A program made the translations under genes and the position numbers. Shown piece by piece: positions 53,760 through 58,754 of a stretch of DNA of 64,000 nucleotides. This DNA comes from Bradyrhizobium icense. Lineage in GTDB: Bacteria > Pseudomonadota > Alphaproteobacteria > Rhizobiales > Xanthobacteraceae. A model generated the notes under the pieces. The model did not search any database. It saw nothing but the letters and a program-made list of their open reading frames with translations, and was not told where the DNA came from. Numbering within the stretch: the first letter of the stretch is position 1; each line of letters opens with the position of its first letter. The stretch covers positions 7,361,001 to 7,425,000 of the forward strand of contig NZ_CP016428.1 in assembly GCF_001693385.1 (NCBI RefSeq), given 5' to 3'.

Positions 53760-54584
53760 ATGCAGACCCTTCACGTCAACGGCTATGACATGGCCTATCT
53801 CGATATCGGACAAAGCGCTGACAATCGTCCGCCGCTGGTGTGCGTGCATGGCTCGCTGTGCGATTTTAGGATCTGGTCGTCAGTGCTGGGACCGCTGACC
53901 CGCAGGCACCGGGTGATCGCACCTTCGTTGCGGCATTTCTTCCCGGAGCAGTGGGACGGCGTGGGCGACACCTATTCGATTTCGCAGCATGTCGACGACG
54001 TGATCGGCTTCGTCGAGAAGCTCGATACGAAACCGGTCGACCTGATGGGCCATTCGCGCGGCGGCCACATCTGCTTTCGCGTCGCGCAGCGCCGTCCGGA
54101 TCTGTTGCGCAAGCTGATCCTGGCCGAGCCCGGCGGCGAACTCGACGCCACGCTCGACCCTGCCTACAAGCCCGGCCCCTCACCGCTGGCCGGAATGATT
54201 GCAGCTTCCGCTGAAGCGATCGCCAATGGCGACATCGACGGCGGCCTGCAGATCTTCCTGGATGCGCTGGAGGGACCCGGCGCCTGGAAGCGCCTGCCGG
54301 CGACGCCGAAACAATTGCTGCGCGACAACGCCACCACGCTGATCGGCCAGAAGCGCGACCAGCGTCCGCCGTTTTCCAAGGCGGACGCGGCGGCAATCAA
54401 GACGCCGACGCTGTTCATCGGCGGCGCCAACACCAAGGGCACGCTGCCAAAGGTGCTGAAGGCCTTGGCGGCGAACGTGAGGGGATCGCGCACCGAGATG
54501 ATCCCCGGCACCACGCATCCGATGTTCGAGCAAGCGCCGCAGAAGTATGGCGAGATTGTGCTGTCGTATCTCGCGGAGGATTGA
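53760..54584 (+). CDS. Alpha/beta hydrolase (tandem copy 1)
   Basis: A 274-residue alpha/beta hydrolase. Oxyanion region VHGSLCDFRIWS near 29-40; nucleophile Ser 99 in LMGHSRGGHICFR; the C-terminal catalytic His is in PGTTHPMFEQAP. An acidic residue follows in the GGANTKGTLP region, but the exact Asp is unclear. No signal peptide. The next gene encodes a clear paralogue of the same length, starting with the identical 14 residues. Substrate unknown; esterase, lactonase or epoxide hydrolase activities are all possible. Confidence 0.9.
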   Translation: MQTLHVNGYDMAYLDIGQSADNRPPLVCVHGSLCDFRIWSSVLGPLTRRHRVIAPSLRHFFPEQWDGVGDTYSISQHVDDVIGFVEKLDTKPVDLMGHSRGGHICFRVAQRRPDLLRKLILAEPGGELDATLDPAYKPGPSPLAGMIAASAEAIANGDIDGGLQIFLDALEGPGAWKRLPATPKQLLRDNATTLIGQKRDQRPPFSKADAAAIKTPTLFIGGANTKGTLPKVLKALAANVRGSRTEMIPGTTHPMFEQAPQKYGEIVLSYLAED

Positions 54585-54589
54585 TCACG

Positions 54590-55414
54590 ATGCAGACCCT
54601 TCACGTCAACGGCTATGACATGGCCTATCTCGACGTCGGCCAAGGCGCGGCCAACAGCCCGCCGCTGGTTCTCGTGCACGGCACGCTCGGCGATTTCCGG
54701 ACGTGGAACGCAGTGCTGGGGCCGCTATCGAAACAGCACCGCGTGATCTCGCTGAGCCTGCGGCGGTTCTTCCCGGAGCATTGGGACGGCGTCGGCAACG
54801 ACTATCGGATGGCACAGCACGTCGCCGACGTCATCGGCTTCATCGAAAAACTGAATGCCGGACCGGTCGATCTGATCGGCCATTCCCGCGGCGGGCATAT
54901 CGGCTTTCGCGTGGTGCAGATGCGGGCTGATTTATTGCGCAAGGCCGTCCTCGCCGAACCGGGCGGCGATCTCGAGCCGGCGCTGCAACCGAGCAGTCCG
55001 CCTCCCGGCCCCGTGCCGCTGGGCCCGCGTGTTCCGATCGCGGCCGAGATGGTGCGGAACGGTGACATCGACGGCGCGCTGGCGCTGTTCGTCGACGGCA
55101 TCGACGGTGAAGGTGCATGGGCGCGGTGGCCGGCGGCGCCGCGGCAGCAATTGCGCGACAACGTCCATACGCTGCTCGGCCAGGTCGGCGAGAATCGCCA
55201 GCCGTTTCTGAAGAGCGAAGCGGAGGCAATCAGGACTCCGACGCTGTTGATCGGCGGCGGCGACACCAGGGGCGCGCTGGCGGTGACCTGGCGCGTGCTG
55301 GCCGAACATATTCCGGGCGCACGGACGGCGGTGATCCCGGGCACGCGTCACTGGATGTTCGAACAGGCGCCGCAGGAGTTTTGCAACGTCGTGCTGGATT
55401 TCCTGGCGAGGTAG
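54590..55414 (+). CDS. Alpha/beta hydrolase (tandem copy 2)
   Basis: A 274-residue paralogue of the preceding gene. ATG 54590 is chosen because GGAGG precedes it and the protein then aligns from residue 1 with copy 1; TTG 54581 overlapping the previous stop is the other option. Nucleophile Ser 99 in LIGHSRGGHIGFR, His in PGTRHWMFEQAP, cap region differing most (QPSSPPPGPVPLGPR). The first 44 bases are identical to copy 1, far above the identity elsewhere. Same operon, five bases apart. Confidence 0.9.
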   Translation: MQTLHVNGYDMAYLDVGQGAANSPPLVLVHGTLGDFRTWNAVLGPLSKQHRVISLSLRRFFPEHWDGVGNDYRMAQHVADVIGFIEKLNAGPVDLIGHSRGGHIGFRVVQMRADLLRKAVLAEPGGDLEPALQPSSPPPGPVPLGPRVPIAAEMVRNGDIDGALALFVDGIDGEGAWARWPAAPRQQLRDNVHTLLGQVGENRQPFLKSEAEAIRTPTLLIGGGDTRGALAVTWRVLAEHIPGARTAVIPGTRHWMFEQAPQEFCNVVLDFLAR

Positions 55415-55430: not shown

Positions 55431-57191
55431 TTACTTTTGGTCGAGCCGCCACGCACCATCCCAATCGGCGGCCGGCGGATTGACCTGAAAATTCTCGACA
55501 CGCCTGGCCAGCGCCTTCGCCGGTCCGTCGTTGGGAACCGCCTCGAGCGCCGCATGGAATGCCCGGCGCGCGTCGTCCCAGCGGCGCTCCCGATAGGCGG
55601 CGAGCCCTTCGGCATACCGCTCACGCAACGCCAGTTGCTTCGCGGTGAGTTCGCCCTTGCGCCCCAGGATATCGAACACCGCCTGTGGAAGGGTCTGACC
55701 CGCAACCACGAGCCGATCGATCTCGCGGGATTCCACCGCATCGCCGGCCGCTGTGATCACAACCTCCGAAACCAGCGAACGGCTGCCATAGACCTTGTTG
55801 GCGTTCTCCAGCCGCGACGCGAGATTGACCGCATCACCCATCACCGTGTAGCTCATCATGAACTCCGAGCCGATACTGCCGACCAGCACTTCGCCGGCGG
55901 CAACCCCAATGCGAACGTCGCAGTCGCTCGGCACGGCGCGTATGCCGAGCAGTTCGGGCAACTCCCTGCGCAACGCCGTACCGCGATCGGCCATCTCGAC
56001 GGCAGCGAGGCAGGCCAGGCGCGCCTGCTCGCTATGCTCGGTAAAGGGAGGTCCCCAATAGGCCATGATCGCATCGCCGATATACTTGTCGATGATGCCG
56101 CGATTGCTGCGGATCGGTCCCGACATCGTCGACAGATAGTGGTTCATCACCTTGACGAGGCCCTGCGGCGTCATGCCCTCGCTGAGGCTGGTAAAGCCCT
56201 GCATGTCGCAGAACAGCACGGTCATCACCCGCCGCTCGCCGGCGCGGGCCGTCAACGATCGCTGGTCGATCAACCCTTCCACCACGCGGGGATCGACGTA
56301 GCGGCCGAAAGTCTCGCGCAAGCGCTCCTTGTGGCGCAATTGCTCGACCATGTTGTTGAAGGCGGTCGTGAGCTGGCCGATTTCGTCGCGCGTGGTGACG
56401 TCGATCGAGCCGTCGAGCCGGCCGGCCTCGACGGCGCGGGTGCCGTCCAGCAGCCGCCGCACCGGGCGAGTAATACCGGTGCTGACGAAGAACGCGAACG
56501 TCAGTCCGAGGATGGCCGCAAGCATCGTCACGATCGCGGAGATGACAATCGCGCGCTGCTGATCCCGCATCGTCACGGCCGCATCGCTGCGGACCTGCTC
56601 GAACATGTCGTGTCGGATTTCCTCAATCTTGCGATTGAATTCGTCGCGGAGCGCGTCGCTCCGAACAAGGCTGGCCCGTACTTCGGGCATGTTGCCGGCT
56701 TCGAGCAGCGGCCACATCCGCTTGCTCTCTGCTTCCAGATAACGGCGAAGGTCGCTCGTTATGGTTTCGATCCGGTTCTCGATCCGTCCGAGGTTGGCGT
56801 CGTCGGAGACGGTGGTCGGATCATCAATGATTGCAATGATCAGGGCGCGCGCAGCTTGCGCCTCCTGGTCAATCTCCCTGCCCTTCGCCTCATAGATGGC
56901 TTGCTGATCTGCAAAGGCGGTCTCGTCCGGTGGTGTCTGTATCTTGAGGAATACCATCCGGCGAACCACCACCGCCTGCTCCAGCGAGCGGACGTTCATC
57001 CGCGCCAGATGCCCATATGCTTCGACATATTTTGTCGTCAGCTCATCGAGTTGATGCGCAATTTTTCGCGTCATCACCGTCGACAGCGCCGAGATGATCA
57101 CCATCAGAAAGATCAGTCCGATGGCGATGCCGAGGATTCGCTTGCGGATGGTCGGTCGCAGCATCGAGGTATATTCTAAAACCAGGGACAT
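55431..57191 (-). CDS. Membrane-bound adenylate/guanylate cyclase with HAMP domain
   Basis: A 586-residue class III nucleotidyl cyclase. TM1 about 20-42, a periplasmic all-helical sensor (about 43-225; four-helix-bundle type), TM2 about 228-250, then HAMP (TRPVRRLLDGTRAVEAGRL, TTRDEIGQLTTAFNNMVEQL). The catalytic domain has LFCDMQGFTSLSE with the metal Asp, DKYIGDAIMAYWGPP, GVAAGEVLVGSIGSEF and YTVMGDAVNLASRLE. A C-terminal helical region (KQLALRERYAEGLAAYRERRWDDARRAF, split) is TPR-like. It should make cAMP in response to a periplasmic or membrane signal. Neither candidate start (57191 or 57164) has a good ribosome site. Confidence 0.92.
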   Translation of the reverse strand: MSLVLEYTSMLRPTIRKRILGIAIGLIFLMVIISALSTVMTRKIAHQLDELTTKYVEAYGHLARMNVRSLEQAVVVRRMVFLKIQTPPDETAFADQQAIYEAKGREIDQEAQAARALIIAIIDDPTTVSDDANLGRIENRIETITSDLRRYLEAESKRMWPLLEAGNMPEVRASLVRSDALRDEFNRKIEEIRHDMFEQVRSDAAVTMRDQQRAIVISAIVTMLAAILGLTFAFFVSTGITRPVRRLLDGTRAVEAGRLDGSIDVTTRDEIGQLTTAFNNMVEQLRHKERLRETFGRYVDPRVVEGLIDQRSLTARAGERRVMTVLFCDMQGFTSLSEGMTPQGLVKVMNHYLSTMSGPIRSNRGIIDKYIGDAIMAYWGPPFTEHSEQARLACLAAVEMADRGTALRRELPELLGIRAVPSDCDVRIGVAAGEVLVGSIGSEFMMSYTVMGDAVNLASRLENANKVYGSRSLVSEVVITAAGDAVESREIDRLVVAGQTLPQAVFDILGRKGELTAKQLALRERYAEGLAAYRERRWDDARRAFHAALEAVPNDGPAKALARRVENFQVNPPAADWDGAWRLDQK

Positions 57192-57332: not shown

Positions 57333-57782
57333 CTAGACGCCCACAGGCTGACGCACGGCTACATTGAGCCTGTTCCAGACATTGATCTTGGCGATCGCCA
57401 GAATCAACGCCGAGAGCTCCGCCTCGTCGAAATGCTTGTCGGCCTCACTCCAGACCTCGTCCGGCACCGGATCGGCGCGGTCGCTGATCCGTGTCAGCGC
57501 TTCCGTCAACGCCAGGGCCGCGCGCTCGGCTTCGGTGAAATAGGGCGTGTCGCGCCAGGCGGCCACCGCGAACAGCCTCTCGCCGGTCTCGCCGGCCTTG
57601 CCGGCGAGTTTTGAGTGCATGTCGACACAGACGCTGCAGCCGTTGATCTGGCTGGCCCGCAGGTACACCAGTTCGAGCAACTTTTCCGGCAGACTGTTCT
57701 TGGTCAGGTCGCCCAGCGCCTGCAGCGGTTTCATGGCGTCGGGAAGGACCATGACGGGATGATTCATTCGGGCTTGCATCAT
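57333..57782 (-). CDS. AhpD-like alkylhydroperoxidase / carboxymuconolactone decarboxylase family protein
   Basis: A 149-residue single-domain protein. ATG 57782 has GGAG six bases upstream. The redox motif is GCSVCVDMHSK with Cys49, Cys52 and His56 (C-x2-C-x3-H); preceded by LRASQINGC and followed by TPYFTEAERAALALTEALT. This is the CMD/AhpD fold of peroxidatic proteins. It faces an ECF41-type sigma gene across 114 bases, and such a gene is the known neighbour and usual target of ECF41 sigma factors. A terminator lies downstream. Likely function: peroxide or electrophile defence. Confidence 0.92.
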   Translation of the reverse strand: MMQARMNHPVMVLPDAMKPLQALGDLTKNSLPEKLLELVYLRASQINGCSVCVDMHSKLAGKAGETGERLFAVAAWRDTPYFTEAERAALALTEALTRISDRADPVPDEVWSEADKHFDEAELSALILAIAKINVWNRLNVAVRQPVGV

Positions 57783-57812
57783 TTTGCGCTCCATATGGTT
57801 GGTTCTGTTTTT

Positions 57813-57840
57813 GACGCGGCGGCGCCGATCTGCTGTCACA
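57813..57840 (-). promoter_or_regulatory. Candidate ECF41-type promoter for the AhpD-like gene
   Basis: On the minus strand TGTGACA (57840-57834), a 17-base spacer and CGTC (57816-57813) resemble the ECF41 consensus TGTCACA / CGTC with one mismatch in -35. The -10 is 30 bases before the start codon. It uses the same -35 bases as the plus-strand promoter, because TGTCACA is almost its own complement. Confidence 0.5.
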
Positions 57841-57860
57841 TCGGCGCGCTTTCGTTCGTC
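57834..57860 (+). promoter_or_regulatory. ECF41-type promoter for the sigma gene
   Basis: TGTCACA (57834-57840), a 16-base spacer and CGTC (57857-57860) match the published ECF41 promoter motif exactly. It lies 36 bases before the sigma gene's start codon, implying autoregulation. The target motif is quoted from knowledge of the ECF41 family. Confidence 0.68.
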
Positions 57861-57896
57861 ATCACCATGACGGAACGCGACATGGGAATGTGACCG

Positions 57897-58754
57897 ATGG
57901 ACGAGAAAAAGTTTCTGGCTGAGAAATTCGAGGCCAACCGGCCCCATCTGAGGGCGGTGGCCTACCGTATGCTGGGTTCGACGAGCGAGGTCGATGATGC
58001 CGTGCAGGAAACCTGGCTGCGGCTGAGCCGCTCCGATACCAGCGCGGTCGAAAACCTCGGGGGGTGGCTGACCACGGTCGTCGCCCGCGTCTGCCTCGAC
58101 ATGCTGCGCTCGCGCAAATCGCGGCGCGAGGAACCTATGGGTCCGCACGTGCCGGAACCTGTCGCTGACGATATGCATGGGCGCGACGCGGAAATGGCGG
58201 ATTCCGTCGGCGCGGCGCTGCTGGTGGTGCTGGAAACACTCGCGCCGGCCGAACGGCTTGCCTTCGTGCTGCACGACACGTTTGCCGTGCCGTTCGAAGA
58301 GATCGCCCCGATCGTCGGCCGCACACCTGCCGCGGCGAGGCAACTGGCCAGCCGCGCCCGCCGCCGGGTGCAAGGCAGCCCGCCGCCAGACGCCGACTTC
58401 GGCCGGCAGAAAAACATCGTCGACGCGTTCATCAAGGCCTCCCGCGAGGGTGACTTTGAGGGGCTGCTCACGGTGCTCGATCCCGACGTGGTATTTCGTG
58501 CCGATGCTGCCGCGCAACGCCTCGGCTCGCTCGCGGAAATTCGTGGCGCCGCCGCGGTCGCAGAAGCCTTCAAGGGACGCGCACAGTCGGCCAGGCCGGC
58601 GCTGGTCGACGGTGCATTGGCGCTCGCCGTCATTCTCGGCGGCCAACTGCGCATCGTGGTGCGGCTGACGATCAGCGGCGAACGGATTTCGGCGGTCGAA
58701 GCGGTGGCCGATGCCGAGCGGATCGGACAGCTCGACGTAAACCTGCTCGCGTGA
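57897..58754 (+). CDS. ECF41 family RNA polymerase sigma factor (SigJ-like)
   Basis: A 285-residue sigma factor. Sigma-2 about 8-75 (FEANRPHLRAVAYRMLGS, DAVQETWLRLSR), sigma-4 about 110-160 (LETLAPAERLAFVLHDTF, VPFEEIAPIVGRTPAAARQLASRARR split), then a SnoaL-like C-terminal domain about 170-285. The linker reads GPHVPEP where ECF41 proteins have GPWLPEP, and the DGGGK motif of the C-terminal domain is replaced by RADAAAQR. The domain is known to act as a built-in regulator, so these changes may alter control. An adjacent AhpD-like gene and a matching promoter support the ECF41 assignment. No anti-sigma gene is present, as is usual for the group. Confidence 0.92.
   Translation: MDEKKFLAEKFEANRPHLRAVAYRMLGSTSEVDDAVQETWLRLSRSDTSAVENLGGWLTTVVARVCLDMLRSRKSRREEPMGPHVPEPVADDMHGRDAEMADSVGAALLVVLETLAPAERLAFVLHDTFAVPFEEIAPIVGRTPAAARQLASRARRRVQGSPPPDADFGRQKNIVDAFIKASREGDFEGLLTVLDPDVVFRADAAAQRLGSLAEIRGAAAVAEAFKGRAQSARPALVDGALALAVILGGQLRIVVRLTISGERISAVEAVADAERIGQLDVNLLA

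What the first reader, a model, noticed from the sequence alone, without database searches (positions are those of the whole stretch)
57783..57896. Overlapping two-way ECF41 promoter sharing one -35 element
The 114-base gap between the AhpD-like gene and the ECF41 sigma gene contains an exact ECF41 motif on the plus strand (TGTCACA-N16-CGTC) and a one-mismatch motif on the minus strand (TGTGACA-N17-CGTC). Because TGTCACA and its complement differ by a single base, the same seven bases can serve as -35 for both genes. One bound sigma-polymerase would exclude the other, making a built-in competition switch. I do not know of this layout being described for ECF41.
Basis: partly seen in the sequence, partly recalled or inferred. 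Interest (0 to 1): 0.72.

Follow-up and report, generated by a model that had tools for sequence, protein, structure and literature searches.

The report
Mirror-image two-way ECF41 sigma promoter
Between a stress-sigma-factor gene and its divergent neighbour lies a short DNA stretch built as two face-to-face copies of one promoter, so that a single polymerase could start either gene but not both at once; the same mirror layout sits beside relatives of this sigma gene in several bacterial phyla.

Summary
The minus CGTC shows no inferred change in one genus clade (64 of 64 aligned loci), but its spacing floats (15-19, once 24), it is absent as a layout in the other 45 of 110 loci, and present in only 12 of 115 loci of a wide scan.

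On the minus strand, GGTCACA (57895-57889)-N16-CGTC (57872-57869) faces the sigma promoter, giving a 62-bp two-fold-symmetric element with -10 boxes exactly 8 bp apart. It is exact in 130 of 265 genus genomes (reversed control 0). A ~85,000-species scan, cut off at 119 sites, gave gap 8 in 106 although 2-16 was allowed; 115 lie beside an ECF41-like gene. Thirteen same-direction ECF41 promoters lack the second half. A mapped S. meliloti start lies 9 nt after CGTC, which would place each start on the base opposite the other -10.

Best reading: an interlocked bidirectional ECF41 promoter. Transcription is inferred, not shown.

The parts
57834..57895 (.). 62-bp mirror promoter: two ECF41 promoters face to face, dyad centre 57864.5
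   Evidence: both -35 boxes and both -10 boxes are equidistant from the centre; exact in 130 of 265 genus genomes, reversed control 0
57834..57840 (+). -35 of the sigma-gene promoter (P_ecf), TGTCACA
   Evidence: literature consensus TGTCACA-N16-CGTC (PMC3426412)
57857..57860 (+). -10 of P_ecf, CGTC
   Evidence: no inferred change in 64 clade-A and 45 clade-B loci
57869..57869 (+). predicted start site of the sigma-gene transcript (G), 28 nt before the ATG
   Evidence: inference from the S. meliloti start mapped 9 nt after CGTC (PMC3616915) and G at that place in 10 of 13 one-sided promoters
57889..57895 (-). -35 of the mirror AhpD promoter (P2), GGTCACA on the minus strand
   Evidence: TGTGAC(N) on the plus strand in 105 of 110 genus loci, CGTGACC in the other 5, same geometry
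57869..57872 (-). -10 of P2, CGTC on the minus strand
   Evidence: no inferred change in 64 + 45 genus loci
57860..57860 (-). predicted start site of the AhpD transcript from P2 (G), 78-nt leader
   Evidence: inference, same rule as above
   Evidence: invariant in 64 clade-A loci, layout absent in clade B and rare elsewhere
57834..57840 (-). candidate shared -35 of P1, TGTGACA (one mismatch to consensus)
   Evidence: spacing to the P1 -10 varies from 15 to 24 among 65 clade-A loci
57884..57888 (+). probable Shine-Dalgarno (GGGAA) of the sigma gene, lying inside the P2 spacer
   Evidence: read from the sequence; inference
57897..58754 (+). ECF41-type sigma factor gene, 285 aa
   Evidence: Sigma70_r2, Sigma70_r4_2 above cut-off, SnoaL_2 at E 5.4e-5 but 24.2 bits against a cut-off of 27; ORF
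57333..57782 (-). AhpD-like carboxymuconolactone decarboxylase family gene, 149 aa
   Evidence: PF02627 CMD, E 6.5e-20; start ATG 57782 chosen by GGAG at 57790-57793

Best explanation
The gap holds a bidirectional, self-competing promoter for the neighbouring ECF41 sigma factor. Two complete ECF41 promoters are interlocked face to face on opposite strands (57834-57895): P_ecf reads right into the sigma gene, P2 reads left into the AhpD gene. The -10 boxes are 8 bp apart, so each start site (predicted 57869 + and 57860 -) should fall on the base opposite the last base of the other -10 box; each -10 complement thus doubles as the other promoter's start region. One sigma-polymerase could engage the element in either direction but not both at once, so positive autoregulation and output would draw on the same binding site. 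Shown: sequence, geometry, conservation, gene context, absence of the second half in same-direction loci. Inferred: that both directions are transcribed, the start sites, and exclusion.
For: Geometry 16/8/16 in 110 of 110 genus loci read, 104 with exact boxes; 130 of 265 genus genomes exact, one site each in the rows printed, reversed control 0 of 265. These 130, compared by hand, all lie among the 136 genomes that hold this ortholog; the other six (G015, G047, G062, G071, G076, G214) each differ by one base in a box. Protein-found divergent alphaproteobacterial loci outside the genus: 9 of 9 mirror with gap 8, two with one mismatch. Same-direction loci: 0 of 13 one-sided promoters have GACG at the mirror place or TGTGAC within 40 nt. 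Substitutions per site in clade A: boxes 0-0.14, spacers and gap 3.9-5.5. Start site 9 nt after CGTC measured in S. meliloti.
Against: No transcript data for any mirror locus. P2's -35 starts with G, not the consensus T. P2 would give AhpD a 78-nt leader, whereas the two mapped COE leaders are 22/23 nt, which fits P1 better. Not universal: a divergent locus of another class (L250) has two separate promoters, and 4 of 4 divergent Streptomyces plasmid loci keep only the COE half at up to one mismatch. Sites in the wide scan share ancestry, and the pattern itself fixed both spacers at 16 and excluded TGTGACC.
Confidence: 0.8

Rival explanations
1. One reading: AhpD is driven by the back-to-back promoter P1 that shares the -35 with the sigma gene, and the face-to-face site is not a promoter.
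For: P1 -10 box invariant in 64 of 64 clade-A loci; N17 is within the published 16 +/- 1; predicted leader about 22-23 nt, like the two mapped COE leaders.
Against: Spacing 18, 19 or 24 in 6 of 65 clade-A loci; layout absent in 45 of 45 clade-B loci although AhpD stays divergent; 1 of 9 and 12 of 115 elsewhere; leaves the invariant P2 boxes unexplained.
Confidence: 0.1
2. The central palindrome CGTCA-N6-TGACG is an operator for a dimeric regulator, and its symmetry has nothing to do with a second promoter.
For: The centre is palindromic in most loci: A after CGTC in 94 of 103 and T before GACG in 90 of 103 gap-8 loci.
Against: The -35 pair is symmetric about the same centre; 0 of 13 one-sided ECF41 promoters have the second half; no other regulator gene was seen as a constant neighbour, though this was not searched for.
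Confidence: 0.05
3. The GGAATGTGACCGATG stretch is conserved as the ribosome-binding region or a leader peptide (ATGACG...GGAATGTGA) of the sigma gene, not as a -35.
For: It holds a Shine-Dalgarno-like GGGAA and an open frame ending 3 nt before the start codon.
Against: The leader ATG is lost in several loci (for example L018, L019, L021) while GACG stays; one-base shifts occur between TGTGACC and the ATG (L018-L020, L022, L033) but none between GACG and TGTGACC in 110 loci; none of the 13 one-sided promoters shows TGTGAC in the 40 nt after the -10.
Confidence: 0.04
4. Chance match in a GC-rich intergenic gap.
For: The loose single motif is at chance level genome-wide.
Against: Reversed-pattern control 0 against 130 of 265 genomes; 106 of 119 sites share one of fifteen allowed gap lengths.
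Confidence: 0.01

Closest known systems
ECF41 sigma factors and their promoter TGTCACA-N16-CGTC (Wecke 2012, PMC3426412; passages and two sections read)
   Same: domain plan, CMD neighbour, both promoter motifs; divergent loci often with the motif before both genes (Table 4)
   Different: the paper's text that I read lists the motifs gene by gene; the interlocked mirror with an 8-bp gap is not described there
Bidirectional promoters of sigma-70 type (Warman 2026, PMC12825309, abstract, introduction and discussion read; PMC10268837, passages read; Warman 2021 seen only as a citation)
   Same: pseudo-symmetric DNA engages polymerase in two directions; divergent starts a short distance apart (18, 10 and 23 bp are named); binding one way excludes the other
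   Different: those share one near-symmetric -10 element; here two full ECF promoters, each with its own -35 and -10, interlock, both for the same alternative sigma factor, one of them reading into its own gene
S. meliloti SMb20029-rpoE9 (PMC6180224, PMC3616915; passages read)
   Same: ECF41 promoter, CMD target, start mapped 9 nt after CGTC
   Different: same-direction operon, one-sided promoter

Membership tests
ECF41 sigma factor | sigma2 and sigma4 domains | tested here: met
   PF04542 and PF08281 above cut-off
ECF41 sigma factor | C-terminal SnoaL-like extension | tested here: inconclusive
   SnoaL_2 at residues 175-260, E 5.4e-5, 24.2 bits, below the curated 27
ECF41 sigma factor | adjacent COE gene with CxxC | tested here: met
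   PF02627; CSVC seen in the translation
ECF41 sigma factor | TGTCACA-N16-CGTC promoter | tested here: met
ECF41 sigma factor | no linked anti-sigma gene | not tested
   neighbouring frames were only listed
Bidirectional promoter (Warman and colleagues) | overlapping promoters on both strands with starts a short distance apart | tested here: inconclusive
   overlap shown; starts predicted 57869 and 57860, not mapped
Bidirectional promoter (Warman and colleagues) | a shared, near-symmetric -10 element | tested here: not met
   two separate -10 boxes 8 bp apart
Bidirectional promoter (Warman and colleagues) | divergent transcripts observed | not testable with these tools
   needs 5'-end mapping

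The most novel reading that the evidence does not exclude
A two-fold-symmetric 62-bp sigma-factor promoter, held at one exact geometry across several phyla, works as a one-site, two-output divider: a single ECF41-polymerase binds in one direction or the other, each -10 box serves as the other's start region, and the ratio of sigma factor to detoxifying enzyme is set by the DNA whatever the amount of active sigma factor, which also caps positive autoregulation.
Probability: 0.4. Interest if true: 0.75.

Novelty: new variant of a known kind. Interest (0 to 1): 0.62.

Why it matters
It would show that an alternative sigma factor can control its own gene and its target from one symmetric binding site, with competition built into the DNA. 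Because the element is short, self-contained and spread over several phyla, it is a clean natural test of how polymerase chooses direction, of whether competition caps autoregulation, and of why the centre is held at 8 bp. It also gives a specific signature (TGTCACA-N16-CGTC-N8-GACG-N16-TGTGACA) for finding divergent ECF41 loci.

Tried and rejected
Shared -35 as the general layout: rejected on spacing and clade distribution, kept as a clade-specific extra. A sigma-70 -35 (TTGACG) at the P1 box reading right: rejected by eye, no -10-like sequence at the proper distance. Inverted repeat GCCGAT-N10-ATCGGC around the shared -35: conserved in clade A only, not pursued. Leader peptide and ribosome-site readings: see rivals. 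Viral contigs: no relative of the sigma factor. An Actinomycetota sample centred on L130 could not be drawn; 16 plasmid loci of Actinomycetota were read instead, of which 4 divergent ones lack the mirror. Published dRNA-seq of B. japonicum: passages of the main text name no ECF41 gene; supplements could not be opened. Literature searches for an ECF bidirectional promoter listed no paper describing one; most subscription papers are not held, among them two ECF41-related papers asked for by id.

The first alignment mixed strands because minus-strand loci were not turned; it was redone and not used. My notebook gives the odd P1 spacing of L061 as 22; the recount gives 24.

Full report
Observation. 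The gap separates a CMD/AhpD-like gene (57782-57333, minus) from a sigma gene (57897-58754, plus) with Sigma70_r2, Sigma70_r4_2 and a sub-threshold SnoaL_2 match. TGTSACA-N15-18-CGTC occurs 12 times in the 8.3-Mb genome against 13 for the reversed control, so the bare motif means little away from its place.

Genus comparison. A protein search found a match at E <= 1e-40 in 153 of 265 genus genomes. By my reading of that list 129 hold a full-length ortholog (72% identity or more) and 7 a partial one; the other 17 hold only a 35-43% paralog. I read 110 of the 136 loci. In all of these except L079, which is cut before it, a CMD gene lies divergent. They fall in two types by the sigma promoter -35: TGTCACA (64, plus one TGTGACA; clade A) and GGTCACA (45; clade B), always N16-CGTC.

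In clade A the minus CGTC box at 57813-57816 has no inferred change in 64 aligned sequences on a tree of length 3.9, while its neighbours change 5-7 times per site. So the box matters there. Its distance from the TGTSACA is 17 (53), 16 (5), 15 (1), 18 (3), 19 (2), 24 (1). In clade B it is gone, apparently with a deletion of about 12 bases that also turned TGTCACA into GGTCACA (sequences; deletion size by eye).

The mirror. Both -35 boxes and both -10 boxes are symmetric about 57864.5. In 110 of 110 genus loci the geometry 16/8/16 holds; boxes are exact in 104, and one base off in six. In the whole genus the exact pattern with a free gap of 2-16 hits 130 of 265 genomes; the reversed pattern hits none, and every match printed (the list is cut) has gap 8. 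By hand, the 130 genomes all belong to the 136 with the ortholog, and the remaining six are the six one-base variants. In clade A the substitutions per site are 0.14 (P_ecf -35), 0 (P_ecf -10), 0 (P2 -10), 0.14 (P2 -35), against 3.9, 4.4 and 4.4 in the two spacers and the 8-bp gap; in clade B 0, 0, 0 and 0.86 against 2.1, 2.4 and 2.1. The 8-bp gap varies in letters but not in length.

Beyond the genus. The last letter was chosen to leave out the TGTGACC of this genus, so the count is a lower bound of a chosen subset. Gap 8 in 106, 9 in 7, 11 in 3, 5 in 2, 10 in 1. An ECF41-like gene starts beside 115 of 119 and reads away; a CMD relative by tblastn lies divergent on the other side in 74 of the 115, none was found in 41. 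Of the four without an adjacent sigma gene, three have gap 8 and lie beside a CMD gene (one of them cut at the piece's edge), one has gap 5 and looks like chance. Titles, printed for 80 of the 119, name Rhizobium, Bosea, Shinella, Streptomyces, Kribbella, Actinoplanes, Terriglobus, Ktedonobacter, Dictyobacter, a Myxococcales and a Dormiibacterota genome, among others. On a tree of 147 sigma proteins mirror loci appear in several branches, including beside one-sided ones, so the layout is either old and sometimes lost or has arisen more than once.

Loci found by protein, not by pattern. Nine of nine divergent alphaproteobacterial loci outside the genus have the mirror with gap 8, two with one mismatch (eight from genome searches, plus the R. 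johnstonii plasmid locus I chose). Against: L250, of another class, has two separate divergent promoters; four of four divergent Streptomyces plasmid loci (three of them close in sequence) keep only the COE half. Same-direction loci are the natural control: 12 of 14 have a one-sided promoter before the CMD gene (L261 and L262 have none at up to one mismatch). With S. meliloti that makes 13, and none has GACG at the mirror place or TGTGAC within 40 nt. One orphan locus (L270) has GACG at gap 8 but no second -35.

Why 8. In S. meliloti the mapped start of the ECF41 operon lies 9 nt after CGTC (PMC3616915, passage). In the 13 one-sided promoters that ninth base is G in 10, preceded by C in 11. 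A gap of 8 puts the first G of GACG, the complement of the other -10, on that place. In gap-8 mirror loci the base before it is T in 90 of 103. So each -10 box would double as the other promoter's start region. This is inference from one mapped start and base counts.

Mechanism. The best reading is a bidirectional promoter at which one ECF41-polymerase chooses a direction. Sigma-70 bidirectional promoters are known to exclude two polymerases at once, but competition matters only when activity is high (PMC12825309, abstract, introduction and discussion). An active ECF factor feeding back on its own gene could reach that state; whether it does is not known. P1 may add an AhpD start in clade A with the usual short leader.

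Prior work. Wecke 2012 reports both genes preceded by the motif in many divergent loci. I found no description of the interlocked mirror in the searches made, which cover open papers only; its Table S1 and the paper of Wu 2019 were not seen.

Noticed in passing
L196, 6027-6088: In the locus titled Ktedonobacter robiniae the whole 62-bp element, spacers included, is a near-perfect palindrome.
   Followed up: no
window 53760-54584 and 54581-55414: Two adjacent, overlapping frames start with nearly the same alpha/beta-hydrolase-like sequence (MQTLHVNGYDMAYLD...), apparently a tandem duplication.
   Followed up: no
window 55431-57191, minus: Long frame that looks like a membrane sensor with a class III nucleotide cyclase domain; judged by eye from the translation.
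   Followed up: no
genomes G011 and G091: The back-to-back pattern GACG-N-TGTSACA-N-CGTC hits one repeated sequence dozens of times (52 and 32 forward hits), probably a mobile element mimicking the motif.
   Followed up: no
L148, L184, L205: Three mirror loci have a centre gap of 11, that is 8 + 3 bases.
   Followed up: no
L230 and L234: Mirror with gap 8 beside a CMD gene, but the other side holds another, DoxX-like looking frame in place of the sigma gene; L230 has an ECF-like piece about 1.3 kb away.
   Followed up: partly
window 57820-57847 and orthologs: Inverted repeat GCCGAT-N10-ATCGGC around the TGTCACA, well kept in clade A, absent in clade B.
   Followed up: no
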